IMG/VR virus record: IMGVR_UViG_3300032050_000024
Coordinates: 1-64,000 of that record
Strand: one strand, 5' to 3'
Source: a virus
Length of the DNA: 64,000 nt
The translations under genes were made by a program, and so were the position numbers. This document shows, one piece after another, positions 10-62,928 of the stretch. Position 1 is the first letter of the stretch; each line of letters begins with the position of its first letter. Below the pieces are notes generated by a model. That model did no database searches. It saw only the letters and a program-made list of their open reading frames with translations, and was not told the origin of the DNA.

Positions 10-2073
10 TTATTCTGCTAATTCCAAGAACTTTGCATTTACCGATTTGGATACTTCATTCATATTGGTTGGATTAATAAATTGTGCATCTACGCCATAC
101 ATTGCTTTAAAACTACGTCGAGAGCTGTCAGGTAAATATCCGCTATCATAAATAAAATATGAAATGATGTTAATGCCTAATTCTCGATATGTATTAATAA
201 CTTTTCGTGTAAATTCAACTCCATTGTATCTATATGCACAACCAGATACCGTTGTTGGTTCGCCATCTGAATAATTTATAAAAATACATTCATCGCCTTT
301 TGCATCTTTACGTATATCTGATTCAATACTTTTAAATGATAATCCTTCCGGTGTACATCCAAATGTAGTCAAATATTTGAACATTGTTCTAATTTTACTC
401 ATTTTATCTCGAGCTGAATCATATGCATATACGGTTACACAACGTTCTTTATTAGAATTAATATTACTAGTTCCTCGCAATGATATTTGAACTCGTATAC
501 CTGTTGTCATTGATGCTGCTTGTGCAACTGCAACTGCTGATGTAATTGCATTTGCAAATTTAGTACCGCTCATTGAACCTGAGGCATCAATTGAAATATG
601 AATAAAATAATTCTTAAATCTATCCGTTACAATTCTATGAAATACATTTACATTGTCATAACCTAATTGTGAAATTAAACGTCTATCAATTTTACCAGAC
701 TGCAATCTAGTAGATTTAAGACTTCGTTCTGAATCTCGTATTTGCAATTTTCTACCTAATTGTTTACCTAGAATAATACCTTTAGTAACCGCTTCATCTG
801 TTTCTCTAACACCTCTTACATTGTAAGAGTTAGATTCTAAATCTCGTTGATAATTTCTAGAACCATCTACGTAAACAACGCCGGCGAACAATTGCGGCAA
901 TGATTGAATGATTCCTGGTGTTAATTTTTTAATAACAATGGTATCAATTATATCAGCTGTGCCGGCTTCATTAGTTGCAACAGAACGGATTTCTGTTCCA
1001 GATTCTCGCATTGCATTAATAATATGCGATTGTTGCTTGGTAACTCGACCGTTTTTCTTTGTTTCTCCGTTTAAGAAATCTTTTTGCTTTTCAATAACTT
1101 CGTTAAGCTTTTTTAATTCCTTATCAGTTAAAGATGATGTTGATTCACTATCTTCGCCGCCGTCAGTCTCTTCATCAGATTCACTTTCATCAGACTCACT
1201 TTCATCATCAGATTCTCCCGATCCAAACCCAACGCCTGAACCTGTTTGTTGTTGTGTATTGTTTGAATTTCCTGGTTGAGGCTGTGCCGTTGCAACGGCT
1301 TTTTTGATTTCTTTGTATACTTCTAATGCTACTAACAAACAATCCGTTGTAGATGTCAAACGAGCAATGTTTTTCAAATCAATCAAAGACCAAATTTTTC
1401 TCAATGCAACTAATTCATCTAATTGTCTGTTAGGATTAGTAAAATTAATAATATGAAACATGTAATCATCCCAAGTTTCTTCTGTCTTTTCATGTTGTTG
1501 CAATGCTTTATCAATAACTTTGTCATTGAAATATTTGTTATACATTGCTTCATAGTATGCACGATAACCTGGAGCTGTTGTATAAATATAATAATCAATT
1601 CTACGATCTTCAATCCAATTTAACAAATCTTTGATAATATTGAAATCTGAACGAGTCATTGTCATATCCGGATCGGCGCCATTCAAACGAATAATATTTG
1701 CAAACTCTGTATTTTCAATGAACCCCGTATAAGTTTTGTTTGAACTTTTAAATAAATCAAAATTAGTTAAAGCAATATGCGAGCCTTCATGAAGTGCTAA
1801 CCCAACTGCAGGATCAAAATTCTTATCTTCTAATTTAGTTCCAATAACAACACGTTCTCCGTCAGTATAACTATTATCACTACTTTGAAATACAACTGGT
1901 ATTTGTTTGCCAGTAACAATATTAACAAAGTTACCAATTGCTCTTTGTGCAGCAGCTAATTTAGTTAAATCAACTCCGCCATGCTCGGTTTTAAAGTTAG
2001 TATCAAACTCTCTATCTAACCAAAAGCTAGATGCATAATATGTTGTCTTAGTTGGATTTTGTTTTTGTGACAT
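10..2073 (-). CDS. vWA-domain protein with N-terminal HExxH putative metallopeptidase (CobT-like)
   Basis: A protein of about 687 residues. Near residues 95-99 it has HEGSH, an HExxH zinc-peptidase-like motif. Around residues 285-315 there is a very acidic Asp/Glu/Ser tract, and near residue 495 a von Willebrand A metal site (DASGSM). This architecture resembles CobT-like and 'putative metallopeptidase plus vWA' proteins that work with MoxR/CobS AAA+ ATPases, and the next gene upstream encodes exactly such an ATPase. I place the start at the MSQKQ methionine, because an upstream in-frame ATG (2127) would add a hydrophobic stretch and run over the promoter-like region. Role inferred: an ATPase-driven remodelling or proteolysis partner. 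The substrate is unknown. Confidence 0.8.
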   Translation of the reverse strand: MSQKQNPTKTTYYASSFWLDREFDTNFKTEHGGVDLTKLAAAQRAIGNFVNIVTGKQIPVVFQSSDNSYTDGERVVIGTKLEDKNFDPAVGLALHEGSHIALTNFDLFKSSNKTYTGFIENTEFANIIRLNGADPDMTMTRSDFNIIKDLLNWIEDRRIDYYIYTTAPGYRAYYEAMYNKYFNDKVIDKALQQHEKTEETWDDYMFHIINFTNPNRQLDELVALRKIWSLIDLKNIARLTSTTDCLLVALEVYKEIKKAVATAQPQPGNSNNTQQQTGSGVGFGSGESDDESESDESESDEETDGGEDSESTSSLTDKELKKLNEVIEKQKDFLNGETKKNGRVTKQQSHIINAMRESGTEIRSVATNEAGTADIIDTIVIKKLTPGIIQSLPQLFAGVVYVDGSRNYQRDLESNSYNVRGVRETDEAVTKGIILGKQLGRKLQIRDSERSLKSTRLQSGKIDRRLISQLGYDNVNVFHRIVTDRFKNYFIHISIDASGSMSGTKFANAITSAVAVAQAASMTTGIRVQISLRGTSNINSNKERCVTVYAYDSARDKMSKIRTMFKYLTTFGCTPEGLSFKSIESDIRKDAKGDECIFINYSDGEPTTVSGCAYRYNGVEFTRKVINTYRELGINIISYFIYDSGYLPDSSRRSFKAMYGVDAQFINPTNMNEVSKSVNAKFLELAE

Positions 2074-2088
2074 ATCTTTAATTTTTAT

Positions 2089-2096
2089 ATAAATAA
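2089..2096 (-). promoter_or_regulatory. Variant ATATTTAT-type promoter motif
   Basis: The minus strand reads TTATTTAT followed by ATAAAAA, 16 bases before the vWA gene start. It is one mismatch from the motif found upstream of many genes in this window. Confidence 0.35.
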
Positions 2097-2133
2097 TATA
2101 AGAAATTATTTGCCAGTTTCCAAGCAAAATAGA

Positions 2134-2196
2134 AAAAAAAGAAACAGATCACGCTGATTAACGAATGGTGATTTTTGCCGTAACTGTTTCCTTTTT
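2134..2196 (-). terminator. Structured terminator after the MoxR gene
   Basis: On the minus strand GGAAACAG pairs with CTGTTTCT (outer stem of about 12 bp with A/T extensions), enclosing an inner ATCAC/GTGAT stem, and a run of eight T follows. It lies between the MoxR stop and the vWA start, so it probably attenuates transcription between the pair. Confidence 0.6.
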
Positions 2197-2209
2197 GAGC
2201 TATGAAAAA

Positions 2210-3379
2210 TTAAAATGGAATACCGTTGCCATCTTCTTCGCCTGTATTGAAGATGTCTTTCATTTCGGTAGCCATATGCTTTTGTACAATTTGTTTAACA
2301 AAGGTTCTTTCTGAGTCAGCACCGCCTGATGCATCAAAGAAAGGAAAGATTGCAACCTCAGCGGCTTCTGATAAAGAAAATCCGTCTGCCAATAATTCAC
2401 ATATTCTAACGGTCATCCTAGTAGATACCATTGTGGATAATTTACCTTCTTCTGATCTCCACTCCTTACGAGTTGCATCTGCAATGTCTGCTACTGCTTC
2501 AATCATACCACCTTTCACTGCCGGAAAGCGTTTGCAAAGCAAATTAATTTCTTGTTCTTTAGATAAGATGTCTACTTCGATAATTTCAAAACGATCCATC
2601 AAAGCTCTATCCAATACTCGGGTTGAAGTATACTCTGTACCAATGTTTGCTGTAGCAATAAAGGATACATTTTGTGCAACTTGAATTGTAGGAGAATTAA
2701 CATCTTCATCCAATCTCAAATAGCGTTGGCCTTCATCCAATACAGTCATTAAGATGTTCCATGCTTCTGGATGTGCTCTTGATAACTCATCTAGCAATAT
2801 GATTGCATCTTTGGTTTGAATTGCTTTTACAAATGCAGATTCATCAAAGGTTGTCTGGCCGTCTTTGAAATGGGTATTACCAATAAGGGTTGCTCTTGGA
2901 TCTTGAGTTGCACCCAAGTTAAAATAAAAGAATGGACGATCTGTTGCCTTAGGTAATTCTTTAGCCGCTTGTGTCTTACCACAACCTGCAGGACCAACCA
3001 TCATGATGTTCTTACCTCTAACTGCCGATCTAACCAAATACTTCCATTTGATATCAGACATTTCTAAGTTAGCTGGTTTAATCTTATGTGCATTATGAAT
3101 CAATGCTAACGTTGCATCCATTTCTTGTTTAGGCATAGTTTGTTCTGATTGTTCTATTATTGCTTCTACTATCAAATGTTCAATTTCACTTCTAGAAATT
3201 CTTCTAGCACGACCCGTTTCATAATCATATTCTAAGGCTTCACCATTATCTACCGCATGTTTTACCATAATGGGGCGGAACAATGATGTAATGTCATTAC
3301 CTGTGCCTACTTCAGAAATGTAAGGATTAGAATTTTCTGGCGTAAACATTACAACGCCAATTGTTTTTGTTTTTTTCAT
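2210..3379 (-). CDS. MoxR/CobS-like AAA+ ATPase
   Basis: A 389-residue AAA+ ATPase. Walker A is GPAGCGKT (residues 129-136) and Walker B is IILLDE (about 193-198). An ATANIG sensor-1-like segment and a downstream arginine-rich region follow. The MoxR family couples ATP hydrolysis to remodelling of partner proteins, usually vWA proteins, and such a partner is encoded immediately downstream. Related CobS-like ATPases are common in T4-like phages. The C-terminus is acidic and ends in IPF, similar to the SSB tail. A hairpin overlaps the start region. Function in the phage is not established. Confidence 0.88.
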   Translation of the reverse strand: MKKTKTIGVVMFTPENSNPYISEVGTGNDITSLFRPIMVKHAVDNGEALEYDYETGRARRISRSEIEHLIVEAIIEQSEQTMPKQEMDATLALIHNAHKIKPANLEMSDIKWKYLVRSAVRGKNIMMVGPAGCGKTQAAKELPKATDRPFFYFNLGATQDPRATLIGNTHFKDGQTTFDESAFVKAIQTKDAIILLDELSRAHPEAWNILMTVLDEGQRYLRLDEDVNSPTIQVAQNVSFIATANIGTEYTSTRVLDRALMDRFEIIEVDILSKEQEINLLCKRFPAVKGGMIEAVADIADATRKEWRSEEGKLSTMVSTRMTVRICELLADGFSLSEAAEVAIFPFFDASGGADSERTFVKQIVQKHMATEMKDIFNTGEEDGNGIPF

Positions 3380-3418
3380 AGCTCTTTTATTTTTCTATAT
3401 TATATGAAATAAAGAGCT
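3380..3418 (-). repeat. Inverted repeat in the MoxR leader
   Basis: Arms AGCTCTTT(T)ATTT (3380-3392) and AAATAAAGAGCT (3407-3418) form a stem of about 12 bp with one bulge. It ends next to the MoxR start codon and overlaps the stop of the preceding gene. It could be a translational operator or a weak terminator. No T-run follows. Confidence 0.4.
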
Positions 3419-3893
3419 AACGTCCAACCAATTGTGCATGTTTTTTATGCCGATGTAACAACCAAAGTCTATATAACATTAAATGTAAGTGATATGCACA
3501 AAGCAATTCAACACATATAATTTCGCCTATTAAAAAATCATGATAAGCAACGATGCCTCCAATAATCATTAACGCAGTATACCACGTAAATCTGTGTCCT
3601 AATGCAACAAACAATGTAGATACTATAAAAAAAGTAACAGCTAATATATTATGAAATACAGGCCATTCATGAAAATTAAATGCCGTTAACAATAAAAGAA
3701 GTATTGCTGAGAATTGCCAACGTTCCATGGAGAATAAAAAATATGATGTAACTGCATTCATGATAATGAATAAGGGTTGTGCCGGAGTATTCCAATAAGC
3801 ACTTAATGATTGTTCGTCACCAAATTGAATGATTAGAAATGGAAATGTAACTGCAATTAAAATAGACATCAATCTGGCAACTAGTTCACTCAT
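3417..3893 (-). CDS. Small multi-pass membrane protein
   Basis: A 158-residue protein with about four or five hydrophobic segments separated by short loops, and a positively charged C-terminus (HRHKKHAQLVGR). I recognise no family. Its start overlaps the stop of the secreted CUB/T9SS-like protein by four bases (ATGA), so the two are probably translationally coupled and may act together at the envelope. Confidence 0.7.
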   Translation of the reverse strand: MSELVARLMSILIAVTFPFLIIQFGDEQSLSAYWNTPAQPLFIIMNAVTSYFLFSMERWQFSAILLLLLTAFNFHEWPVFHNILAVTFFIVSTLFVALGHRFTWYTALMIIGGIVAYHDFLIGEIICVELLCAYHLHLMLYRLWLLHRHKKHAQLVGR

Positions 3894-5173
3894 CGTAACA
3901 CCTTTCTTATAGTGCCATCGTCATAAACTTCAATAACTACACCTGGTGTATTGGCATCTACTTCTTGGCCTATTAAATTAATGTATCGTATAATTCTTTT
4001 CTGCGATAACCTATTATCCGATGCAATAGGACCGTAAATTTTATATGCACCATCTACATCATATTGCACTAATCGATAATAATTTATAACATGCTCTTTG
4101 TATATATGTAAATATGTATACGTTATTTTTTCTGCAGAATATCCCGCAGCAGGTTTAATTCCAATTGGTATCCAAGTTTCTCCATCCGTTGAGTGTTCAA
4201 CGACAAAGTTTAAAGAATTTGATTCAGAAGCGGTTGCCCAATTTAAAACGTTAAATAACGGATAATGTCGCGTTTCAAAATATAAAAGTTCTACCGGTAG
4301 TGGTGTTATCATGTTTGCTGTTGCTTGAAATCCCGTCCATGTTCCTATGTTTGATACATCTGTTTTTACTCGCAATGTTAATTCACCACCTGCAGATGTA
4401 GAAGTTATAGCTCCAGGAATAGTTGTGCCTGTATATGATCCGATCCTAGTTGATGAAGTAGTTGGCCCATCATATACAAACAATGTATCATATGCTGTTT
4501 CTAAACTAAATGCAGTAAATGTTAATTCTATTTTTTTAGTAGGATCCGAAGGTTGCAATACAAGAGTGTGATCCATACTGTTATTGTATGTTTCATTTGG
4601 CCCGCCCTGGTCAATGATTATGAATTGAGAACCAATTGTTTGTGTACAATTGCCAGTTAATGGAAAAGGTACCATATTGTTATCAGTTGAGTTAGTTGAC
4701 GTCCAAGTCATATCTTCAATATAACGTTCATGTGCACCGCTTGCTCTATTATCTCGCATTCTAACATATACATTAGTTAAACCCAATGCCCCTAAATTTA
4801 ATGTATATTGTTGATATGTTGCAGTAGCATTAGTTATAGTGCTTCGTGTAGTCCATGTTGCATTATCCGGAGATGTTTCTACAATTAAAGGCCAAGCCGT
4901 TGTGTTTGTGCTTCTTCTATACCAAAATGAAAATACGCTAGGAGATGCAAGTTGAGGTGTTCTTATCCAATCTCCAGCACCATTAAATGCAATAGCTCTA
5001 GCACCTATACGAGCACCATTTGTAGTAGATAACATGGAATTTGCAGCCCATGTTCCTCCTTGTGTTGGCAATGTAGTTGATCCAAAACTTTCAAATGCTT
5101 GATATGCATTACATTGACATAATGTAATATGTGTTGCTAGTAAAACCGTAATAAATAAAATAATTTTGTTCAT
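3890..5173 (-). CDS. Secreted CUB-domain protein with T9SS-like C-terminus
   Basis: A 427-residue protein. Residues 1-22 look like a signal peptide (MNKIILFITVLLATHITLC). The middle has a CUB-like domain (FTAFSLE, YDTLFVYDG, GGELTLRVKTD). Next comes a domain typical of flavobacterial secreted proteins (LPVELLYFE, NVLNWATASESN, VVEHSTDGETW, YYRLVQYDVDGAYK). The C-terminus (NLIGQEVD, then DDGTIRKVLR) resembles a type A sorting domain of the type IX secretion system. These features are known from Bacteroidota, which points to the host phylum and to acquisition of the gene from a host. The role is unknown; a surface-displayed product altering the infected cell is one possibility, and a virion adhesin is an alternative. 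Confidence 0.75.
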   Translation of the reverse strand: MNKIILFITVLLATHITLCQCNAYQAFESFGSTTLPTQGGTWAANSMLSTTNGARIGARAIAFNGAGDWIRTPQLASPSVFSFWYRRSTNTTAWPLIVETSPDNATWTTRSTITNATATYQQYTLNLGALGLTNVYVRMRDNRASGAHERYIEDMTWTSTNSTDNNMVPFPLTGNCTQTIGSQFIIIDQGGPNETYNNSMDHTLVLQPSDPTKKIELTFTAFSLETAYDTLFVYDGPTTSSTRIGSYTGTTIPGAITSTSAGGELTLRVKTDVSNIGTWTGFQATANMITPLPVELLYFETRHYPLFNVLNWATASESNSLNFVVEHSTDGETWIPIGIKPAAGYSAEKITYTYLHIYKEHVINYYRLVQYDVDGAYKIYGPIASDNRLSQKRIIRYINLIGQEVDANTPGVVIEVYDDGTIRKVLR

Positions 5174-5175
5174 GA

Positions 5176-5215
5176 TAGGTTGATTTATTAATAAATATAA
5201 AAATCATAACCTATT
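5176..5215 (-). repeat. Inverted repeat enclosing a promoter motif
   Basis: Arms ATAGGTTGATTT (5176-5187) and AAATCATAACCTAT (5202-5215) are complementary apart from a two-base bulge. The ATATTTAT motif sits in the loop, directly upstream of the CUB/T9SS-like gene, which would suit an operator. Confidence 0.4.
5192..5199 (-). promoter_or_regulatory. ATATTTAT promoter-like motif
   Basis: Exact motif on the minus strand (TATATTTATTAATAAA context), 18 bases upstream of the start of the secreted CUB protein gene. Confidence 0.45.
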
Positions 5216-5247: not shown

Positions 5248-5370
5248 TTATGCCGTTTTATTATCGGTGCCTTTATGCTTAGTTTTTCTAGTATATTTTT
5301 TCTTGTTCTTTTGAACTATCGGACGTGTTGCTTGCCAAATTTCTTGCAATGTGACTTGAATCTTTTCCAT
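5248..5370 (-). CDS. Small basic protein (40 aa)
   Basis: A short open frame encoding 40 residues, beginning MEKIQVTLQEIWQA and ending in a lysine-rich tail (KNKKKYTRKTKHKG). It fills an otherwise empty gap and begins five bases after an ATATTTAT motif, the same layout as several longer genes here. The basic tail suggests nucleic-acid binding, but I recognise no family. Confidence 0.55.
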   Translation of the reverse strand: MEKIQVTLQEIWQATRPIVQKNKKKYTRKTKHKGTDNKTA

Positions 5371-15126: not shown

Positions 15127-15161
15127 GTATGATGCCTTAAAATATATTTTTATTATTATAA

Positions 15162-15169
15162 ATAAATAT
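15162..15169 (-). promoter_or_regulatory. ATATTTAT promoter-like motif
   Basis: Exact motif (AACATATTTATTTATAATAA) in the 109-base gap upstream of the 900-residue protein. Nothing else is visible in that gap. Confidence 0.45.
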
Positions 15170-17021: not shown

Positions 17022-18167
17022 TTATGTTTTTAAAACAATGAGTTTATCTTGTTGTTCTTCTAACGAATAGATTGAAATTTTGAATATATCTATTTCAAAT
17101 TCGCCTATAGCACCACTGTCTGCAATTATTGCTGTAAGTTGTTGAATGTACTGAAAATTTTGTTGTGTTAAACGGGTTGCATCAAATTCAACAACTATAT
17201 CATTTTCACCGTTTGGGTCGTTATGTCCTATATGTAATACTCGTTTCATTAAATCATATGCAGTTTTTGCCTGTTCTGAATAAATATATGAATCAATAAT
17301 AACGTGCATATCATCTTCGATATAAATTCTATCACACCATGGTTCTAATGTTTCAAGAATTTGTAAATTGCAATTACGTACTACAAATGCAACATTATAT
17401 TTAGGTGCGTCAATCCTACTACCCCATTTTCTAATGTAATTTCGATTGCTTTGCAATTCTATAGTTTGGGTTCTATGTTCATATTCTTCTGAGAAGCGTG
17501 ATGTTTTTGAAACAAAATGATAACATATTGCATCTAATGCAGTAATGCATTCCATTCCGTACATTTTCCATCTACGAATCAAATCATCATCTTCACAGAA
17601 CATTGGATTGTATAAAGGATCCAATCCTCCAATTTCTAACAATGCTTTGCGGGGCATACACATAAAAAATGTAATACCCGGCTCTGTTTGATCTGCATAA
17701 CGTGCATGTTCAATTTCACAATACTCTCGGAACGCATCTTTATCAAACGTTTCCAAAGACTGTCCAAAATCGAATATCAATTTTCCAGGACGCGTATGAT
17801 CTCCGAATATAGGTGGCTCTATTGTGGTATATGACACTACTCTATCAGGTGCAACATGTTTTTCTAAATTTTCTAAGAATCCCGGGCCTAATACAATGTC
17901 ATTATGTAGATATGCTACATAATCGCAACTAGCCAATTGTGCAGCTGCATTGAATGTATCCGAAAATGTTTTTGATTCGGTTGAATATTCAAATCTAACA
18001 TGATTATCTGATAATGACTGTAACCATTCATGGGTTCCGTCTGTTGATCCATAACTTACAAAACATATTTCTACGTCCGGATAGAGTTCTCGAGTTGTTT
18101 CATAAAAATGTTTGTTGTAGTCTAAATTGTTTCTTAAACCTACTAGGAGCGAAATATTATGTTTCAT
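17022..18167 (-). CDS. GT2-type glycosyltransferase
   Basis: A 381-residue protein. The N-terminal GT-A fold shows SYGSTDGTHEWL, YLHNDIVLG in the metal/sugar-nucleotide site, GGLDPLYNP and EDDDLIRRW (likely catalytic Asp region). This is the family 2 pattern, inverting transfer from a nucleotide sugar. About 120 C-terminal residues form a separate domain I do not recognise. It is the last gene of the ten-gene glycan operon and overlaps the next one by four bases. Confidence 0.85.
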   Translation of the reverse strand: MKHNISLLVGLRNNLDYNKHFYETTRELYPDVEICFVSYGSTDGTHEWLQSLSDNHVRFEYSTESKTFSDTFNAAAQLASCDYVAYLHNDIVLGPGFLENLEKHVAPDRVVSYTTIEPPIFGDHTRPGKLIFDFGQSLETFDKDAFREYCEIEHARYADQTEPGITFFMCMPRKALLEIGGLDPLYNPMFCEDDDLIRRWKMYGMECITALDAICYHFVSKTSRFSEEYEHRTQTIELQSNRNYIRKWGSRIDAPKYNVAFVVRNCNLQILETLEPWCDRIYIEDDMHVIIDSYIYSEQAKTAYDLMKRVLHIGHNDPNGENDIVVEFDATRLTQQNFQYIQQLTAIIADSGAIGEFEIDIFKISIYSLEEQQDKLIVLKT

Positions 18168-24572: not shown

Positions 24573-25808
24573 TCAAACCTTTTGTAGTTTTGGTAATTTT
24601 AACTCAACAGCTTTTGGTAACTTATCAATACCAGAATCAATAATCTCTAATACTTGATCATATATGCTAGATACTGCCGTTTCAGTAAATGTTGAATTAA
24701 CGAAGTATCTTTGACGTTTTGCTAATTCTACCCATTTTTTATAATTCTTTAAAACATCTTTCATCATGGAGCTAGCATATCCATAATCCACAGTAAACCA
24801 TTTAGCATCGCCAATTAAAAATTCATTTTGAGCTGTTGGATGAATAGGAGTCAATTGGCCAGGTAATGCACATATAAAATCTTTCTTTAAGAAATCAGCT
24901 TGACCCGAATAATGTGGAGCTAATATGGGTTTACTTGTTGATGAAAATTCTAATAACGGTCTTCCAAACCCTTCTGCTTTTGTAAATGATATTAGAGCTT
25001 TTATTTTTGGATGATTGTACAATGCATTCATTTCGGCCGTAGTTAAATCACCATGTAACAAATATACTGACGGTAATCGTTCACCCGGGAATAATGATGC
25101 TACTTGATTGATACGATCTTGCATTTCAAATCGGTCAGTTACGGAATATGTTGCTCCACTTGTTTTAAGTATTAATGCGGGTGCATCTTTTTTATTTTTA
25201 AATGTATTAAAAAAACAATGTAGCATTCCGCTTATGTTTTTTCTGTCTTCGCCTACTTGACCTTGCAACCAATGTCCTACACTTAAAAATGCTTCAGATT
25301 CTCGTATTTCATTTAATCCTGCAACTTTAGTAGTTACTGATTTATTATTGTATTGTGTTTCATCAAAATATTCTGGAACAACTTGAATTTTTGTAAGAAT
25401 ATCTAAATTATGACGTTTTGCGGTTTCTTCAAATACTGTTTTAGTAAATTCACTAGGAACTATTACAACTTGCATTTGATTAATTTTTTCAATCCATTCT
25501 TTAGGACAAATATCGCCTTCGGTTCCTGCCGTAACTCCAATATTATATTTACCAATTGGTTGAAATTCATTTGGAACTGTTATCTGTACCCAAACATCTG
25601 GTTGAGAGGTTAATGGCAATGGAACTATTCGATTAGCCCAATCTACTGGTATTGGATATGTCATTGGAGTATGACCCCATGGCATTGATAACAATTTAAT
25701 ATCCCATTCTGCACTTTTTTTATTAATAAATTGTTTGATAACTTCGCGTGCATGATGTCCATAACCACTTTGCGTTGCTACTGGAGATGATATAACTACT
25801 TTATACAT
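24573..25808 (-). CDS. GT4-type glycosyltransferase
   Basis: A 411-residue GT-B protein. The N-terminal SGYGHHAREVIKQF precedes a hinge, and the C-terminal half carries FTKAEGFGRPLLEFSSTSKPILAP, the E-x7-E type motif of family 4 retaining glycosyltransferases. The C-terminus ends KLPKLQKV, almost the same peptide as the start of the next glycosyltransferase upstream (MELPKLQKI). The genes overlap by 13 bases, and the products may form a complex. Confidence 0.88.
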   Translation of the reverse strand: MYKVVISSPVATQSGYGHHAREVIKQFINKKSAEWDIKLLSMPWGHTPMTYPIPVDWANRIVPLPLTSQPDVWVQITVPNEFQPIGKYNIGVTAGTEGDICPKEWIEKINQMQVVIVPSEFTKTVFEETAKRHNLDILTKIQVVPEYFDETQYNNKSVTTKVAGLNEIRESEAFLSVGHWLQGQVGEDRKNISGMLHCFFNTFKNKKDAPALILKTSGATYSVTDRFEMQDRINQVASLFPGERLPSVYLLHGDLTTAEMNALYNHPKIKALISFTKAEGFGRPLLEFSSTSKPILAPHYSGQADFLKKDFICALPGQLTPIHPTAQNEFLIGDAKWFTVDYGYASSMMKDVLKNYKKWVELAKRQRYFVNSTFTETAVSSIYDQVLEIIDSGIDKLPKAVELKLPKLQKV

Positions 25809-27295
25809 TCTACTATTCCTGTTTTTTCGTATTTATGTTCTATAACTTTATTTAACGTATATCTTGAACGATTCATTGGTTTATGAGTGAATAAATAATC
25901 AATCATATGAATCATTTTTTGACCCATCTGTTCTCCCGTAAGTCCATTTTGTAACGCCCATTGTCTGCCGGCTTGACCCATTTCTTCTCGAAGCGTTTCT
26001 GGAGTATTATACCAATATTCAATTGCATTAGCTACATCTTCATAATTTACTCGATCATCAAAGATATATGGCGTTTGAGGCGAACCTTGAAGTGATCGGT
26101 TACTTGGAAACACCGGTTTGGCCCATACTCCATGTAATTTATATCGACCCATATGATTTGTTGCAAAATCGCCATTAAAACGTATCCATTCATCATTTTC
26201 GTCTACAAAACCGCATTGATCTTGTAATCCTCCGGTAACATTGTTAATAATTGGCGTTCCTGACAAAATTGCTTCAGTTGAACTCAAACCCCAACCTTCA
26301 TTTGAACCAATATTAACTACTACATCTGCAACATTATACATTGCATTTAAGTCTGCAGCTCCTATCTTTTGTTCTGAAAATATTATTTTACAATTTGGAG
26401 CTAATGCCTTCCATATGGCTCGTAAATCCGTTCCATTTCCATCAACAACTTGCGTATGCATAAGTAATGCAACTTTGTTTTGTTTATCTACTGGTAATTT
26501 ATCAACAAAATGTTTGAATGCTAGGATTAAATCACCAGGTTGTTTTCTTCGTATATTTCTATTATTCCAAAATACAATAAAATCTACTCCATTAGCTTGT
26601 TTTAAACGATCATATGCAGCTTGATATAAAGGATCTTCCGAATCTAATGGTTTAAATATGTTATGATTTAATCCGTGAGGCACAAATCCTGTAATGATTT
26701 GATTTGGTTCTACAGTGCCTGGAACTTCATCATGTTCGTCATAATCTACAACCTTAAATCCGTTCTGTGTAAGAACTTCTCTGTGAATATTATCAGATTG
26801 CTTACTAATTCCCATAATTAAATCACAACTTGCATAAAAAGGTGCATTCCACATTGGATACGGTAAATCATCCCAAATTGAATAATAAATTATAGGAACT
26901 TGATATGTTGTTTTAATTTCATGTTCTAATGCATATAACCAAGTCCAATAACGAGGATCAGTAAAATGAAATATTGCATCTGGTTGTTCTTGATTTAGAA
27001 GTGCAAATAAAATATTTTTATCGCCATATCCGTTCCATGGAATAAGTTTTACTGATGCATCTTGTACACCTGTTTCTCGCGCTACGTCTGCAGATAAATC
27101 GAATCCGCGGCCAGCTTCTGGGTGTTCTAATGCTGCACCTAGTTGCACCCAATCATAATGATGCACGGTGTTTAAAATAATTTCTTTACTAATAGTTCCA
27201 ATTCCCGAAGGCAATCGAAAATCATCTGCTAATAATAAAATTTTCTTTTTCTTTGTTTTGTTAAGGTCAATTTTTTGTAACTTTGGTAACTCCAT
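25796..27295 (-). CDS. GT4-type glycosyltransferase (large)
   Basis: A 499-residue GT-B protein and the first gene of the glycan operon. After the MELPKLQKI tag comes ILLLADDFRLPSGIGTISKE, the N-terminal glycine motif. FWNNRNIRRKQPGDLILAF and NIGSNEGWGLSSTEAILSGTPIIN are the family 4 C-terminal donor-binding motifs. A clear ribosome binding site (AAAGGACG) precedes the start, and the operon promoter motif lies 34 bases upstream. Confidence 0.9.
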   Translation of the reverse strand: MELPKLQKIDLNKTKKKKILLLADDFRLPSGIGTISKEIILNTVHHYDWVQLGAALEHPEAGRGFDLSADVARETGVQDASVKLIPWNGYGDKNILFALLNQEQPDAIFHFTDPRYWTWLYALEHEIKTTYQVPIIYYSIWDDLPYPMWNAPFYASCDLIMGISKQSDNIHREVLTQNGFKVVDYDEHDEVPGTVEPNQIITGFVPHGLNHNIFKPLDSEDPLYQAAYDRLKQANGVDFIVFWNNRNIRRKQPGDLILAFKHFVDKLPVDKQNKVALLMHTQVVDGNGTDLRAIWKALAPNCKIIFSEQKIGAADLNAMYNVADVVVNIGSNEGWGLSSTEAILSGTPIINNVTGGLQDQCGFVDENDEWIRFNGDFATNHMGRYKLHGVWAKPVFPSNRSLQGSPQTPYIFDDRVNYEDVANAIEYWYNTPETLREEMGQAGRQWALQNGLTGEQMGQKMIHMIDYLFTHKPMNRSRYTLNKVIEHKYEKTGIVECIK

Positions 27296-27328
27296 TCGCG
27301 TCCTTTATAACTTTTATATAACTTTAAT

Positions 27329-27336
27329 ATAAATAT
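27329..27336 (-). promoter_or_regulatory. ATATTTAT promoter-like motif of the glycan operon
   Basis: Exact motif (ATATATTTATATTAAAG) directly after the preceding stop, followed by two copies of AAGTTATA and a ribosome binding site. It implies the operon shares control with tail and lysis genes. Confidence 0.5.
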
Positions 27337-34342: not shown

Positions 34343-35602
34343 TTAAAATTTAAAGAATTTATTAAAGTTTTCTGCATCGGTTGTTGAAATACTACTACCT
34401 CCGAATTTTTTATATGTTTTAATGTATTTTTGATATACAGTTGGTGCTGCATCTGGATCTGCAAACATTTCGTGTAAAGATAAAATAACATCATAAAGAT
34501 CTTTTGGAATTACCGTTTCTAGCAATTCAACGTGACTGTCAACCATTTGATTGATTTCTTGTGCTGCTTGTACATACAAATGCGTATTATGCACAACCAT
34601 TCTAGGCATTGCTTCTTGCGAAAATCTGTCTAAACCTTCTGGAGTCTTACCTCCTAGCAATTCATATGTGAAATCTTTACAAGCGGGGCAACCTAATGCA
34701 CAAGGAACATGTTGAGTTAAATCAATACCAACTTCACCCGTTTTACCTTGTTTGATGTGTGACTTTCTGCGATATTCTGCATTCTTTGGAAAATACAATT
34801 CTGAAAATGATTGTGTCTTGTAATTTGTTGAATGAAGATATGTTCCAAATACCGGATATTGTCCTGGAGATGAAGAATCTGTTGTAATATAAATTCTATT
34901 ATTGGTAAGTTGATTCATCAATTTTTGCAATGTTGCTAATATGAAGAAATCTGATATTTTTGAAATACCTAACAAATGCACATATTCTAAACGCTGATTT
35001 TCAAATTCTCTTTCTTTAAGCATCAAAGAAACCGCAAACATAAAATCAACTAGCTTTTGTGGACCTCCAATTGCCCAACCTTGAAAATCAAAATGCTTAA
35101 ACTTATGATACCACCAAGTATATTCATCAGCATTTGAACCTTGCAACATGTTTAAGAATTTAGTTTTACCACTTTGATGTTTTTCAAACCAAGCAAAGTT
35201 ATCAAAACTAATATCAGCACATAGTGCAAATTGATTTTTATATTTTGTTTTAGGCGGAATATCTAAATTTGCAGCAACATCGCTATTAGCTTCTAACCAA
35301 TGAAAAATCTTTTCACGTAATTCGTTGCTATAAGGTAATGCACCTGTTGCAATCTGATAACCTCCAGAATCTCCAAATACTAACACATCATCTTCTAATC
35401 CCATTTGTTTTCTGAAATCCATTTTTTTGTAATGATGTCCTGCTGTTACTAGAAAATATGGATGTCTCCAATCTTTAGGATAGCGGGAATCAAAGAATTT
35501 TACTGGATCTCCACTTTCGAACTTCATATCCTTTTTAAATGCAGATACCATAGATCCCGCAGATAAAGATGGAAAGTATATGAATCTTTTATTTTCGCTC
35601 AT
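34343..35602 (-). CDS. dpdA: DpdA-like DNA 7-deazaguanine transglycosylase (TGT superfamily)
   Basis: A 419-residue protein. VFGDSGGYQIATG matches the tRNA-guanine transglycosylase motif with the catalytic-pocket Asp and Gly-Gly. QGWAIGG fits the TGT GxAIGG loop, HLLGI follows, and CALGCPACKD supplies zinc-type Cys ligands. Phage DpdA proteins exchange guanine in DNA for a 7-deazaguanine. FolE, QueD and QueE genes in the same window supply precursors. It shares a TAATG overlap with the glycosyltransferase gene upstream. Confidence 0.85.
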   Translation of the reverse strand: MSENKRFIYFPSLSAGSMVSAFKKDMKFESGDPVKFFDSRYPKDWRHPYFLVTAGHHYKKMDFRKQMGLEDDVLVFGDSGGYQIATGALPYSNELREKIFHWLEANSDVAANLDIPPKTKYKNQFALCADISFDNFAWFEKHQSGKTKFLNMLQGSNADEYTWWYHKFKHFDFQGWAIGGPQKLVDFMFAVSLMLKEREFENQRLEYVHLLGISKISDFFILATLQKLMNQLTNNRIYITTDSSSPGQYPVFGTYLHSTNYKTQSFSELYFPKNAEYRRKSHIKQGKTGEVGIDLTQHVPCALGCPACKDFTYELLGGKTPEGLDRFSQEAMPRMVVHNTHLYVQAAQEINQMVDSHVELLETVIPKDLYDVILSLHEMFADPDAAPTVYQKYIKTYKKFGGSSISTTDAENFNKFFKF

Positions 35603-36666
35603 TATATTCCTTTTGCTTCGTTTAATTTATTAATAAGTCCCATTGTTGTTTTATGTTGTTTCAAGCAATCGATTAAACGAGTTGCTGAAAAAAAGTTATG
35701 ATGTAATTTTGCAACTAATTGTGCAATACGTTCAGACATTTCTTCGTCTTCATATTCCAATATTGCATTTACTGCCGAATCAACTGAATCGGCTCGTTTA
35801 AACATTGGATCATACATTTCCGTATATGATAATCGGTTTGGTACCAATGGACATGCTCCTGCGCAAGCAGCTTCATACATTGATATTCCTAATGTTTCTT
35901 GTTCTGCAAATGATACTGCAAATTTTGCTCGTTGCAGTAATTCATGATATTCTGTTTTAGATAAATTCATTTCCATTGCAACACAAAATTGATATTTCCA
36001 CAGTTCTGGTCTTGAAGCTAACATATGAAATAAATCTAATCGTTTCTCGGGAGCAATACGATGCGGAAACACAATAATATTTTCTTTTTTAGCCCAAAGT
36101 TTAGGAGCAATCATTGATTCGGTATATTCCATTGGCCAACCCGTTCTATCAAAAGATCTGTCGTGCATAATGTCATATGTTTCCTTCATTAAATTAAAAT
36201 GTGCTGCTGTTGCTAACCAATTGTGCGTAAATGCTCCAATAAAGGCTTGCTCAGCGTGTCTAATCCATGGTTTATCTCCTACGAGTCGACCTAAAAAATC
36301 ATTTGGGTCATATGAACCCGCGTGCCAAAGTCCGTGCGTTATAACAGGAATATTTAAAAGTTCACTCATATACTTAACATTGATAATTCCTGGGTGCCAA
36401 GCATCTGTAAATATGATTTGATCTCCTGCTTTAATTTCACCGCGAGTAAACAATTCTGCTAATCGATGTGTTTGTGTAGCTTTATACATGTTAGTGCCAC
36501 CAAAGTTTAAAAAGGCACCTGGAGTAACAGCTGTCGGAATATCTAAATCGCCTTCAATAACTTCTACATCAAATCCATTATCTCGAAGTAAAGCTGGAAC
36601 GTGCCATTTCCATTCACAAGTATAACGGGTTGGAACTGATTCTAAATCTACTAAAAATATTTTCAT
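35602..36666 (-). CDS. GT-B glycosyltransferase, possible DNA-base glycosyltransferase
   Basis: A 354-residue GT4-like protein: FPHRIAPEKRLDLFHML (donor-binding Arg/Lys) and SFAEQETLGISMYEAACAGACPLVP (the E-x7-E motif). It is encoded apart from the glycan operon, inside the replication/modification region, and overlaps dpdA by one base. I therefore infer it acts on the modified base in DNA, as the T4 glucosyltransferases do on hydroxymethylcytosine. A protein or lipid acceptor is the alternative. Confidence 0.82.
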   Translation of the reverse strand: MKIFLVDLESVPTRYTCEWKWHVPALLRDNGFDVEVIEGDLDIPTAVTPGAFLNFGGTNMYKATQTHRLAELFTRGEIKAGDQIIFTDAWHPGIINVKYMSELLNIPVITHGLWHAGSYDPNDFLGRLVGDKPWIRHAEQAFIGAFTHNWLATAAHFNLMKETYDIMHDRSFDRTGWPMEYTESMIAPKLWAKKENIIVFPHRIAPEKRLDLFHMLASRPELWKYQFCVAMEMNLSKTEYHELLQRAKFAVSFAEQETLGISMYEAACAGACPLVPNRLSYTEMYDPMFKRADSVDSAVNAILEYEDEEMSERIAQLVAKLHHNFFSATRLIDCLKQHKTTMGLINKLNEAKGI

Positions 36667-37480: not shown

Positions 37481-39997
37481 TTATTTTCCAAATGAAAAGA
37501 ATTTTGCAACTGAATTATTTTCTGGAAATGCTCCCCAATTCATTGCTGCATAGAAATCATCAAGTTTATTTTTCAATTCTTTTGCAAATATCTTGTTACG
37601 ATCTATGTATTGTTCTACAAAATCCGTAATAACTTTTGGATCTTGATAACCTCGAAGTGCCATTGTATCAAACCCAAATGGATTATCTGACAAATATGCC
37701 CATTTTACCTTTTCGCCATCTGTGATAGGTTCTATGTCTCGAATTCCGTTTGATACTAATAAATCATTAAAATTAATTGCAGATTTAACGTGTGCTGGAG
37801 TTCCTGATAAATATCCAGTAAATGGTTTTCTTTTCTTAGTATATTTTGATATTTCTTTAACTCCGGAATTCTTCATTACATTGAGCACTGGAGATGATTT
37901 TAATCCAGATTTGAATTTATGAATCATATCTGTTGTAGCTGTTTTATCGCGTTGCTTAAGAATATGCCAAAGTGTTTCTTTCATTATCTTTTTGAAATCT
38001 TCTGGAAAACTAGATCTTACAACATCTAATCCTTTGATATCAAGTTTATCGGTAGGTTTTCCTTCTTTGAATATAACCCATTGTGCATATCTTTTCTTTG
38101 CAATCCATAAACCAGATTTAGCAACATATTCTTGTTTGATTGTCCATCGATGCGTTTCTGTATTGTGAAATACAACTGCATATCGATCATACATTGTGTT
38201 TACTAAACTTTGAACTTCGGATGCAATTGCATTGGTTTGTGCAATCATGAATTCTTCGTCTGTTTCATCATAATCCGGGAAACGTTTTGCAATCAAAGGC
38301 AATGAACTAACAAAGGTTGAATCCGTATCCGTATAAAATGCAAATTCTGCTTTGCCATTAGTTGCATTAATGAAATGATCTTGCCCTATTTCTTTTGCAT
38401 AATGATTGTTAATAACCTTTGCAGAAAATTTAATTACACTTTGACCTGTTGCTGTGATTGCACCTGCATTATCTAAATCATGGAAACGAAATGTTTTAAG
38501 CCCTAATACTCCATAAAATGAATTAAGCAATACTTTTTGTGTATTTTGTAATGCATCATAGAATTTATATTCTTCTGTTCCAACTTCATATTCATCACGT
38601 TTGTCTTTGTATTCAACACGTTCATCAAACCATTTTGCTAATATTGTTGGTAAAAATCCTTTTATGTCTGTTCGATAAACAGCTCCGTTACTTGCAACAG
38701 TATATGCATTGTCTTGCAACCATGTTTTAACATCTTGAACAAAGGTACCATCTATAAACGTAACTTGCTGTGGATCGGATTTCATTAATAAGTCTTGATT
38801 CCAATTTTTTATTACTGCAACTTTAGTTTCTGGAGAAATATTCAAACTCATGATGATGCTTGGATAAAGTGACGTTAAATCTAAGTCATATATCCATTTG
38901 TATAATCCTGGTATTGGATCTTTTACATATGCTCCAGCGAGTGCGTCTGCTTCTGTTTCTTCTTCAATAAATCGGAATTGTTTGTTAGGTGCAACTAATC
39001 CGTTACGCTTTAAATCTACTATTGCAGCACCGTCTAAGTATTTAGATGCATAATATACATCTTCATATGCAACATGACCTTTATGACATATAGTTCTTGC
39101 TAAATTTAGAAGTTGAGTTTTTTCATCTAATTCATAAACCAAATTAACGTCAACCATGTTATATTCAACAAACTTTTTGATGTCTGTTGCAAATAATTGA
39201 TTCAAGTCACCTTCATATTCTATTTTACCTTTACCTAATTCTGTTTTTGCTACAGTATCTAAACGGTAATTTGGTAATTCTGTATATGTAAATTTCTTGT
39301 ATAATGTTAAATAATCTAAACTCGATACACCGAATATTTTGTATCGTTCTCTGTTTTTATTCCATTCAACAATACCGGCAGGTGAAAGTTTCTTGATTGC
39401 TTGTGCACCTAATACTTTTTTGATTCGATTAACAAGATATGGAACGTCATAATTGTCAATGTTCCAACCAGTAATTACTGTGGGTTGAACTTCTGCAAAT
39501 ATGTTTATAAAACGTGTTAACATATCAGCTTCAGAACGAAATATTTCTACTTCATAATCCGTTTCTTTGAATCCTTGTGTTGTAACTCGCTTTTCTTCAT
39601 CTAATACTAATACTCGACGATCTTGTCCGGCTTTATCATAATATGCAATAGATGTAATTCTTAAACGTGCATCTTGCGGAGTTGAATATCCATTTTCATC
39701 ACGTTCTGACTCAATATCAAAAAAGAAATCTTTATGACCTCGAGATGGAGTATCGGATTCATAATACAAATCAATCAGCGTTCTAACTTCTTCATTTAAG
39801 TCAGATTCATATGCCGTTCTATTATCTTTATGGTTACCAGACATTTTATGTAATCTAGTTCCATCTAGTGACATGTAATCGCCGTTGTCTGCAGGTAAAT
39901 ATGCATATGGTTGAAAAGGAAATCTTTGATGTCCTAATTCATCATCCCATACGTGCATTATGTTATTTTTCTTGTCGTAGCCTATTGCTTGATACAT
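37481..39997 (-). CDS. Family B DNA polymerase, gp43-like
   Basis: An 838-residue replicative polymerase. The exonuclease motifs are FFFDIESERD (Exo I) and GWNIDNYDVPYL (Exo II). The polymerase motifs are DLDLTSLYPSIIMSL (A), KVLLNSFYGVLG (B) and FYTDTDSTF (C). The C-terminus AKFFSFGK resembles a clamp-binding peptide. Close in length to T4 gp43 (898). It copies the genome with the gp45 clamp, and both 3'-5' proofreading and polymerase residues are intact. A second, family A polymerase is encoded at 52882. Confidence 0.97.
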   Translation of the reverse strand: MYQAIGYDKKNNIMHVWDDELGHQRFPFQPYAYLPADNGDYMSLDGTRLHKMSGNHKDNRTAYESDLNEEVRTLIDLYYESDTPSRGHKDFFFDIESERDENGYSTPQDARLRITSIAYYDKAGQDRRVLVLDEEKRVTTQGFKETDYEVEIFRSEADMLTRFINIFAEVQPTVITGWNIDNYDVPYLVNRIKKVLGAQAIKKLSPAGIVEWNKNRERYKIFGVSSLDYLTLYKKFTYTELPNYRLDTVAKTELGKGKIEYEGDLNQLFATDIKKFVEYNMVDVNLVYELDEKTQLLNLARTICHKGHVAYEDVYYASKYLDGAAIVDLKRNGLVAPNKQFRFIEEETEADALAGAYVKDPIPGLYKWIYDLDLTSLYPSIIMSLNISPETKVAVIKNWNQDLLMKSDPQQVTFIDGTFVQDVKTWLQDNAYTVASNGAVYRTDIKGFLPTILAKWFDERVEYKDKRDEYEVGTEEYKFYDALQNTQKVLLNSFYGVLGLKTFRFHDLDNAGAITATGQSVIKFSAKVINNHYAKEIGQDHFINATNGKAEFAFYTDTDSTFVSSLPLIAKRFPDYDETDEEFMIAQTNAIASEVQSLVNTMYDRYAVVFHNTETHRWTIKQEYVAKSGLWIAKKRYAQWVIFKEGKPTDKLDIKGLDVVRSSFPEDFKKIMKETLWHILKQRDKTATTDMIHKFKSGLKSSPVLNVMKNSGVKEISKYTKKRKPFTGYLSGTPAHVKSAINFNDLLVSNGIRDIEPITDGEKVKWAYLSDNPFGFDTMALRGYQDPKVITDFVEQYIDRNKIFAKELKNKLDDFYAAMNWGAFPENNSVAKFFSFGK

Positions 39998-61275: not shown

Positions 61276-61279
61276 ACTT

Positions 61280-61287
61280 ATAAATAT
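61280..61287 (-). promoter_or_regulatory. ATATTTAT promoter-like motif abutting the tape measure start
   Basis: Exact motif (TAATATTTATAAGT then ATG), with no ribosome binding site between motif and start. Confidence 0.45.
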
Positions 61288-62284: not shown

Positions 62285-62309
62285 AGATTCCTTTTATAAC
62301 TTCTTTATT

Positions 62310-62317
62310 ATAAATAT
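62310..62317 (-). promoter_or_regulatory. ATATTTAT promoter-like motif of the gp26-like gene
   Basis: Exact motif (ACATATTTATAATAAAG), after the tube terminator and 25 bases before the gp26-like start. Confidence 0.55.
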
Positions 62318-62897: not shown

Positions 62898-62920
62898 TTT
62901 TTTTCCTCAATAATTTTATT

Positions 62921-62928
62921 ATAAATAT
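62921..62928 (-). promoter_or_regulatory. ATATTTAT promoter-like motif of the tube gene
   Basis: Exact motif (TTATATTTATAATAAAA), followed by GAGGAA and the tube start. Confidence 0.55.

What the first reader, a model, noticed from the sequence alone, without database searches (positions are those of the whole stretch)
3890..5173. Phage gene for a T9SS-type secreted CUB protein
It has a signal peptide, a CUB domain, the LPVELL..F / ErS.DG / YYRL..vD.DG domain usual in flavobacterial exported proteins, and a sorting-like end. Known: type IX secretion places such proteins on the Bacteroidota surface and T9SS also powers gliding. A phage using it would display a protein on the infected cell, for example to block superinfection or change attachment.
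Basis: partly seen in the sequence, partly recalled or inferred. Interest (0 to 1): 0.62.

Follow-up and report, generated by a model that had tools for sequence, protein, structure and literature searches.

The report
Phage surface protein with short sorting tail
A T4-like phage of Bacteroidota bacteria carries a gene for a secreted, CUB-containing protein that ends in a short tail also found on the exported proteins of these bacteria, so the phage probably borrows its host's type IX secretion system to put its own protein on the infected cell's surface.

Summary
The gene is real: 427 aa, under purifying selection, in a T4-like phage. Its order is signal peptide, jelly-roll-like domain, CUB domain, fibronectin-III-fold 'LPVEL' domain and a 36-residue tail.

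The tail is not the curated type A (or B) T9SS sorting domain. It is a shorter module ('K+IV+YINLMGQEV…G+VIEIYDDGT.RK+IR').

Three results indicate that this tail works as a sorting tail:
- It sits at or within a few residues of the C-terminus of unrelated, mostly signal-peptide-bearing proteins, up to about 40 per genome, in Bacteroidota that encode SprA.
- Of 95 distinct phage proteins with this FnIII domain, 91 end in the short tail and 4 in a type A-like tail.
- One natural swap keeps the body 94–96% identical while its C-terminal part, tail included, is exchanged.

In more than 20 phage loci the gene is followed directly by a gene for a small membrane protein that was not found in the probable host order.

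Phage-encoded T9SS cargo has been reported once before (Cryophage). New here are the short-tail class, the breadth of the phage family, the linked membrane protein and a candidate late promoter. Secretion and function (superinfection exclusion, adhesion) are untested.

The parts
3890..5173 (-). cargo gene, 427 aa: signal peptide, jelly-roll-like domain, CUB, FnIII-like 'LPVEL' domain, short C-terminal tail
5117..5173 (-). signal peptide (residues 1-19), then Gln20 (Bacteroidetes Q-rule; the motif is present in 47 of 53 distinct phage cargos, about 16% in random control 12-mers)
   Evidence: Q-rule PMC5837995
4694..5065 (-). jelly-roll / galactose-binding-like domain, about residues 37-160
   Evidence: searches (choice_anch_J, below cut-off; PF22633, below cut-off), AF2 model (low confidence at its start)
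4325..4591 (-). CUB domain, residues 195-283
   Evidence: (17 of 17 family members)
4007..4300 (-). 'LPVEL' domain, FnIII fold, residues 292-389
   Evidence: AF2 pLDDT 91, VIA-align Z up to 11.7
3893..4000 (-). short C-terminal tail ('mini-CTD'), residues 392-427, three predicted strands
3417..3893 (-). partner gene: 158-aa polytopic membrane protein overlapping the cargo stop by 4 bases; a linked partner is found in more than 20 other phage loci
5190..5197 (-). TATTTATT, one mismatch from the phage's candidate late-promoter word TATTTATA, 17-24 bases before the start codon
5248..5370 (-). small basic ORF (40 aa, MEKIQVTLQEIWQATRPIVQKNKKKYTRKTKHKGTDNKTA) just upstream; similar basic ORF ends precede several other cargo genes
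   Evidence: sequence; upstream sequences of L095, L099, L105, L110, L115, L116
2210..3379 (-). neighbour: MoxR/CobS-like AAA ATPase; with the vWA protein at 10-2073 it keeps its place beside the cargo gene in L001 and L021

Best explanation
The gene encodes a phage cargo protein for the host's own export route. The Sec signal peptide takes it into the periplasm, the C-terminal FnIII + short-tail unit is read by the host type IX secretion system, and the jelly-roll + CUB body ends up displayed on, or released from, the outer surface of the infected cell. The phage probably took the FnIII + short-tail unit from its hosts, an order of Bacteroidota in which that same unit is common, and joins it to exchangeable bodies. 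Candidate late promoters suggest late transcription. The small membrane protein encoded directly downstream probably acts with the cargo. Most likely purpose: changing the infected cell's surface so that related phages do not adsorb (superinfection exclusion) or so that the cell sticks to something. Shown here: the anatomy, conservation, C-terminal position of the tail, its presence on unrelated proteins of SprA-bearing genomes, tail exchange and gene linkage. Inferred: T9SS dependence, surface display, late timing, purpose.
For: Phage context: T4-type gp23 in the same record; T4-like DNA polymerase, clamp loader, UvsX, helicase and baseplate hub in the window. Tail in bacteria: up to 42 copies per genome in small Bacteroidota genomes. 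All of the ~50 proteins checked in two such genomes and a few regions of others have it 0-7 residues from the C-terminus; 40 of 52 table rows pass a crude signal-peptide test, several of the rest being cut off at their 5' end. SprA found in 9 of 9 genomes. 12 of 12 genomes of one family and 217 of 399 of another order, but 0 of 394 others in an even Bacteroidota draw. Exact FnIII + tail unit in 230 of 399 genomes of that order, best E 1e-46. Phage side: 117 confirmed viral stretches against 10 in 257 Gb of bacterial contigs (patterns differ slightly). 95 distinct phage proteins with the FnIII: 91 short tail, 4 type A-like tail. L011 body 94-96% identical to L008/L012/L014, FnIII only ~50-52%, tail replaced by a PNP...GVYY...KQIIR tail. 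L011 lies next to a subtilase with an above-cut-off type A tail and a gene with an above-cut-off type B tail. Q-rule. Purifying selection. Literature: conserved Gly of motif Lb3b4 and the C-terminal end with its Lys are needed for T9SS secretion in P. gingivalis, and the last 22 residues of HBP35 suffice to secrete GFP; the short tail has an invariant Gly and a terminal Lys-rich end.
Against: No curated T9SS model hits the window protein. Profile-profile comparison of the short tail with type A tails aligns only the G-containing motif, probability 3-6%, so homology to type A is not shown. T9SS is common in Bacteroidota, so SprA in 9 of 9 genomes is weak evidence. The four type A-like phage tails score below curated cut-offs (18-22 bits against 27 for the three). 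The phage's host is not known. Nothing here tests secretion.
Confidence: 0.75

Rival explanations
1. The protein is a virion component (decoration or fibre) whose CUB and jelly-roll domains bind carbohydrate; the signal peptide and tail are relics of a captured host gene.
For: Phage structural proteins often carry Ig/FnIII/CUB-like beta domains; a weak PHROG hit to a major tail protein (E 6e-4) covers only about 50 residues.
Against: Signal peptide and C-terminal tail are kept in the diverse homologues under purifying selection. T4-like virions are assembled in the cytoplasm, where a Sec signal would remove the protein (established knowledge).
Confidence: 0.1
2. The short tail is a sorting signal for another outer-membrane export or retention route of these hosts, not T9SS.
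For: No profile homology to type A; tail restricted to some lineages while T9SS is phylum-wide.
Against: Either/or exchange with type A-like tails on the same FnIII domain and coexistence with many type A tails in the same genomes; SprA present in 9 of 9 genomes.
Confidence: 0.12
3. The tail is only the last part of the FnIII-type domain, a folding element without sorting function.
For: In phages it always follows the FnIII domain and AF2 models it next to that domain with high confidence.
Against: In bacteria it occurs on proteins without the FnIII domain, such as a beta-propeller, a PHB-depolymerase-like esterase and a metalloprotease-like protein, always at the extreme C-terminus.
Confidence: 0.05
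4. Same export as in the best explanation, but the purpose is not superinfection exclusion: the protein is released or displayed to bind polysaccharide or particles, or is a general fitness factor.
For: CUB and jelly-roll domains are generic binding folds; bodies vary between phages.
Against: No direct evidence either way; the genome is of a T4-like type that is usually lytic, which makes long-term benefits less likely.
Confidence: 0.35

Closest known systems
Cryophage T9SS type A cargo proteins (Bellas et al. 2020, PMC7468147)
   Same: Phage genes encoding exported proteins with a T9SS-type C-terminus; cargos variable between phage variants; authors also suggest superinfection roles
   Different: Cryophage uses the curated type A domain on endoglucanase, GH39 and PA14 proteins and was called a unique occurrence; here the tail is a short class not covered by those models, in a T4-like phage, in many contigs, with a linked membrane protein gene
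T9SS type A CTD (TIGR04183 / PF18962)
   Same: Extreme C-terminal position on signal-peptide proteins; a Gly-containing G(Q/K)xV motif and a terminal Lys-rich strand; interchangeable with it in the phage proteins
   Different: 36-40 residues instead of 70-100; three predicted strands instead of seven; no PNP motif; no profile match
T9SS type B CTD with downstream PorP/SprF shuttle gene (PMC12618676)
   Same: A membrane protein gene directly downstream of the cargo gene
   Different: No TIGR04131 match; the partner here is a ~155-aa hydrophobic, helix-type protein, not a PorP/SprF beta-barrel, and also occurs without the cargo
T9SS type C CTD (F. johnsoniae ChiA)
   Same: A non-A, non-B sorting tail
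   Different: About 100 aa; no NCBIfam hit of that kind on the window protein, though it is not known whether a type C model is in the library

Membership tests
T9SS type A sorting domain | match to TIGR04183 / PF18962 over the curated cut-off | tested here: not met
   no hit on the window protein at E<=10 (NCBIfam) or E<=1 (Pfam); of 17 relatives only L011 matches PF18962
T9SS type A sorting domain | seven-strand Ig-like sandwich of 70-100 residues | tested here: not met
   tail is 36 residues with about three strands in the AF2 models
T9SS type A sorting domain | motif Lb3b4 glycine and C-terminal lysine motif | tested here: inconclusive
   invariant Gly and a Lys/Arg-rich end are present, but hhalign aligns only the Gly motif at 3-6% probability
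T9SS type B sorting domain | match to TIGR04131 | tested here: not met
   no hit on the window protein
T9SS type C CTD | similarity to the ChiA C-terminal 100 aa | tested here: inconclusive
   no NCBIfam hit; whether a type C model is in the library is not known
T9SS cargo in the broad sense | N-terminal Sec signal peptide | tested here: met
   hydrophobic N-terminus with Gln at the predicted +1, as in 47 of 53 distinct phage cargos
T9SS cargo in the broad sense | C-terminal tail shared with other exported proteins of T9SS-bearing species | tested here: met
T9SS cargo in the broad sense | tail-type exchange on the same protein body or domain | tested here: met
   L011 and L299-L301; those tails are below the curated cut-offs
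T9SS cargo in the broad sense | secretion depends on SprA/PorV | not testable with these tools
   needs a host and mutants
CUB domain | Pfam PF00431 over its cut-off and CUB fold | tested here: met
   34.3 bits against 21.4; TM 0.82-0.84 to single CUB chains
T4-like phage | gp23-type major capsid protein and T4-type replication genes in the same record | tested here: met
   PF07068 207 bits; phrog_262, 168, 97
virion fibre or decoration protein | present in purified virions | not testable with these tools
   needs virion proteomics
PorP/SprF-type shuttle (partner gene) | match to a curated PorP/SprF family or outer-membrane beta-barrel features | tested here: not met
   no NCBIfam hit on the partner; strongly hydrophobic, helix-type segments; weak Frag1/DRAM/Sfk1 similarity in 5 of 20 members

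The most novel reading that the evidence does not exclude
The 36-40-residue tail is a separate, compact class of T9SS sorting signal, distinct from types A, B and C. It is used by certain Bacteroidota lineages on many proteins and has been taken over as the default by a large set of their phages, which pair it with a phage membrane protein and a late promoter to remodel the infected cell's surface.
Probability: 0.5. Interest if true: 0.75.

Novelty: new variant of a known kind. Interest (0 to 1): 0.6.

Why it matters
If true, a family of T4-like and other phages routinely uses the host's own outer-membrane secretion machine to display proteins during infection, rather than this being an oddity of one phage. 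It would also give a very small sorting signal that asks directly how little the T9SS needs to recognise a cargo, and a simple sequence marker linking phages to T9SS-bearing hosts. Standard annotation misses it, because neither the window protein nor the bacterial counterparts tested match a curated T9SS tail model.

Tried and rejected
Curated T9SS models on the window protein: no match. Profile-profile link between the short tail and type A tails: only the Gly motif aligns, not significant. Solved-structure sequence search finds essentially only animal CUB proteins. VIA-align on the FnIII + tail model matches FnIII domains over residues 1-98 only; the tail is not covered, so its fold relation to known CTDs is undecided. 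Partner protein: no PDB sequence relative, no host-order homologue in 364 genomes, with no positive control available. The partner is not always with the cargo: 28 of 59 distinct partner proteins have no cargo within 4 kb, so 'obligate two-gene system' was rejected. The T4 late promoter in its own orientation (TATAAATA on the gene strand) is rare between genes (1 intergenic against 23 for TATTTATA). Direct and inverted repeats around the gene are not remarkable. Chimeric assembly as an explanation for L011's tail was considered; three further contigs with the same kind of tail on the FnIII domain (L299-L301) make it unlikely.

Full report
What was checked. The ORF at 3890-5173 (minus strand, ATG, 427 aa) exists as described. 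Pfam gives a CUB domain at E=3.2e-8, above its cut-off, at residues 195-283. The AF2 model (mean pLDDT 74) is matched by Foldseek to single CUB chains with TM 0.82-0.84 and rmsd 2.1. All 17 aligned family members carry CUB, and 11 carry an inserted GEVED domain. The N-terminus is a signal peptide followed by Gln, as the Bacteroidetes 'Q-rule' expects (PMC5837995); the same motif appears in 47 of 53 distinct phage relatives, against about 16% in random windows. The 'LPVEL...YYRL...DxDG' stretch is a separate domain. An AF2 model of it with the tail has mean pLDDT 91 and an FnIII fold (Z up to 11.7, rmsd 2.4, 86 residues). Pairwise dN/dS of the gene is 0.11-0.25.

The genome. The window belongs to a 130,639-base virus record. 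It has a T4-type gp23 capsid gene at 79837-81267 and, in the window, T4-like DNA polymerase, clamp loader, UvsX, DnaB-like helicase and a baseplate hub. It is therefore a T4-like phage. The cargo gene is the only one in the record with this kind of tail.

The tail. The last 36 residues (window 3893-4000) match no curated T9SS model. They are nonetheless strongly conserved, with invariant N, G, Q, V, G and D. A scan with this tail found 187 pattern matches and 117 confirmed relatives in viral contigs, and 28 and 10 in 257 Gb of bacterial and archaeal contigs; the two patterns differ by one position. In phages the tail reaches the C-terminus or stops 1-2 residues short of it.

The tail in bacteria. 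The ten bacterial loci are Bacteroidota or related metagenome genomes. Their proteins share little else: a PHB-depolymerase-like esterase, a metalloprotease-like protein and SBBP/beta-propeller-type proteins. Small genomes carry many copies: 39 in a 1.0 Mb genome, 42 in a 1.5 Mb genome. Of the proteins read in fetched regions (about 50), all have the tail 0-7 residues from the end; 40 of 52 table rows pass a crude signal-peptide test, and several of the others are cut off at their 5' end. All nine genomes encode SprA, the T9SS translocon, and also many type A tails. At E<=1e-6 the tail is in 12 of 12 genomes of one family, in 217 of 399 genomes of the order of G001 (titled 'uncultured Flavobacteriales bacterium'), and in none of 394 others drawn evenly from the phylum. 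The profile therefore does not simply pick up type A tails. The complete phage-type unit, FnIII + tail, is in 230 of 399 genomes of that order at E<=1e-15 (best 1e-46), and in 1 of 395 of the order of G004 at E<=1e-12. This points to that order as the source of the unit and the probable host group; the host itself is not shown.

Natural tail exchange. Among phage loci, 95 distinct proteins carry the FnIII domain: 91 continue into the short tail and four (L011, L299, L300, L301) into a type A-like tail with the PNP motif. The three tested match PF18962 at 18-22 bits, below its cut-off of 27; L011 matches it at 8.6e-4. L011 is the clearest case. Its first 528 residues are 94-96% identical to L008, L012 and L014, its FnIII domain is only 50-52% identical, and its tail is unrelated to theirs. 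On the same contig a subtilase has an above-cut-off type A tail and another gene an above-cut-off type B tail. One huge-phage record has a type A tail above its cut-off (LR756500, L028) and another ends in a short tail (LR745206, L026). Terminase was found in 4 of 7 large contigs of the family tested; L011's own contig gave none and may be a fragment.

Link to known requirements. In P. gingivalis, the glycine of motif Lb3b4 and the C-terminal end with its conserved lysine matter for T9SS secretion (PMC11285876), and the last 22 residues of HBP35 suffice to secrete GFP (PMC10202324). The short tail has an invariant Gly in a GQxV motif and ends in a Lys/Arg-rich strand. This resemblance is a lead: profile-profile comparison does not reach significance.

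The linked membrane protein. The next gene (3417-3893) overlaps the cargo stop by four bases. Relatives lie directly after a short-tail cargo gene in more than 20 phage loci, with different cargo bodies, and divergently in L002 and L015/L020. Seen from the partner's side, 27 of 59 distinct partner proteins follow such a cargo within 50 bases, 4 have one elsewhere within 4 kb and 28 have none. It was not found in 364 genomes of the probable host order, a negative without a positive control. It has weak Frag1/DRAM/Sfk1 similarity and is not a PorP/SprF shuttle. A functional pair is likely, but it is not obligate.

Expression. TATTTATA on the gene strand falls between genes 23 of 33 times although only 7.7% of the genome is intergenic; where a start codon follows closely it is mostly 10-40 bases downstream. 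A core TATTTAT lies within 70 bases upstream of 40 of 57 distinct cargo genes, against 9% in shuffles. In the window the word is TATTTATT at 5190-5197. This suggests phage late transcription; it is a candidate only.

Interpretation. The most economical reading is Sec export followed by T9SS translocation, with the body displayed on or released from the infected cell. Surface remodelling, for example superinfection exclusion, is the favoured purpose but rests on inference alone. Phage-encoded T9SS cargo was reported for Cryophage (PMC7468147). The literature held here describes types A, B and C, and the searches made here found no report of a tail like this one; most subscription papers are not held. 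So: a new variant of a known kind.

Noticed in passing
whole record G000, e.g. window 2088-2095, 15157-15164, 27328-27335, 61279-61286, 62309-62316, 62920-62927: TATTTATA on the gene strand is about ninefold enriched between genes and often sits 10-40 bases before start codons: a candidate late promoter of this T4-like phage.
   Followed up: partly
window 3417-3893 and relatives in L218-L297: The small membrane protein family also occurs in many phage contigs without a short-tail cargo, so it has a role of its own.
   Followed up: partly
window 5248-5370: A 40-aa basic ORF precedes the cargo gene; similar basic ORF ends precede several other cargo genes (L095, L099, L105, L110, L115, L116).
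   Followed up: no
L011 3167-4726 and 9415-9804: A phage contig encodes a subtilase with a type A T9SS tail and a protein with a type B tail, both above curated cut-offs, close to the cargo gene, plus a DnaK homologue.
   Followed up: partly
L025-L028 (LR756502, LR745206, LR756504, LR756500): Huge phage records of 462-642 kb encode proteins with this FnIII domain; L026 ends in a short tail and L028 in an above-cut-off type A tail.
   Followed up: partly
window 10-3379: A MoxR/CobS-like ATPase and a vWA CobT-like protein lie downstream and keep that place in related phages.
   Followed up: no
window 17022-18167, 24573-27295, 35602-36666: Several glycosyltransferase-like genes, possibly for DNA or surface modification.
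   Followed up: no
window 37481-39997: The closest DNA polymerase among named phages is that of Microcystis phage Mel-JY01 at 44% identity, well ahead of marine cyanophages; the true host of that phage may deserve a look.
   Followed up: no
G000:C1:89674-90054 and 123245-123745 (outside the window): Two further small proteins of the same phage have Bacteroidota-type signal peptides with Gln at the predicted +1 but no short tail.
   Followed up: no
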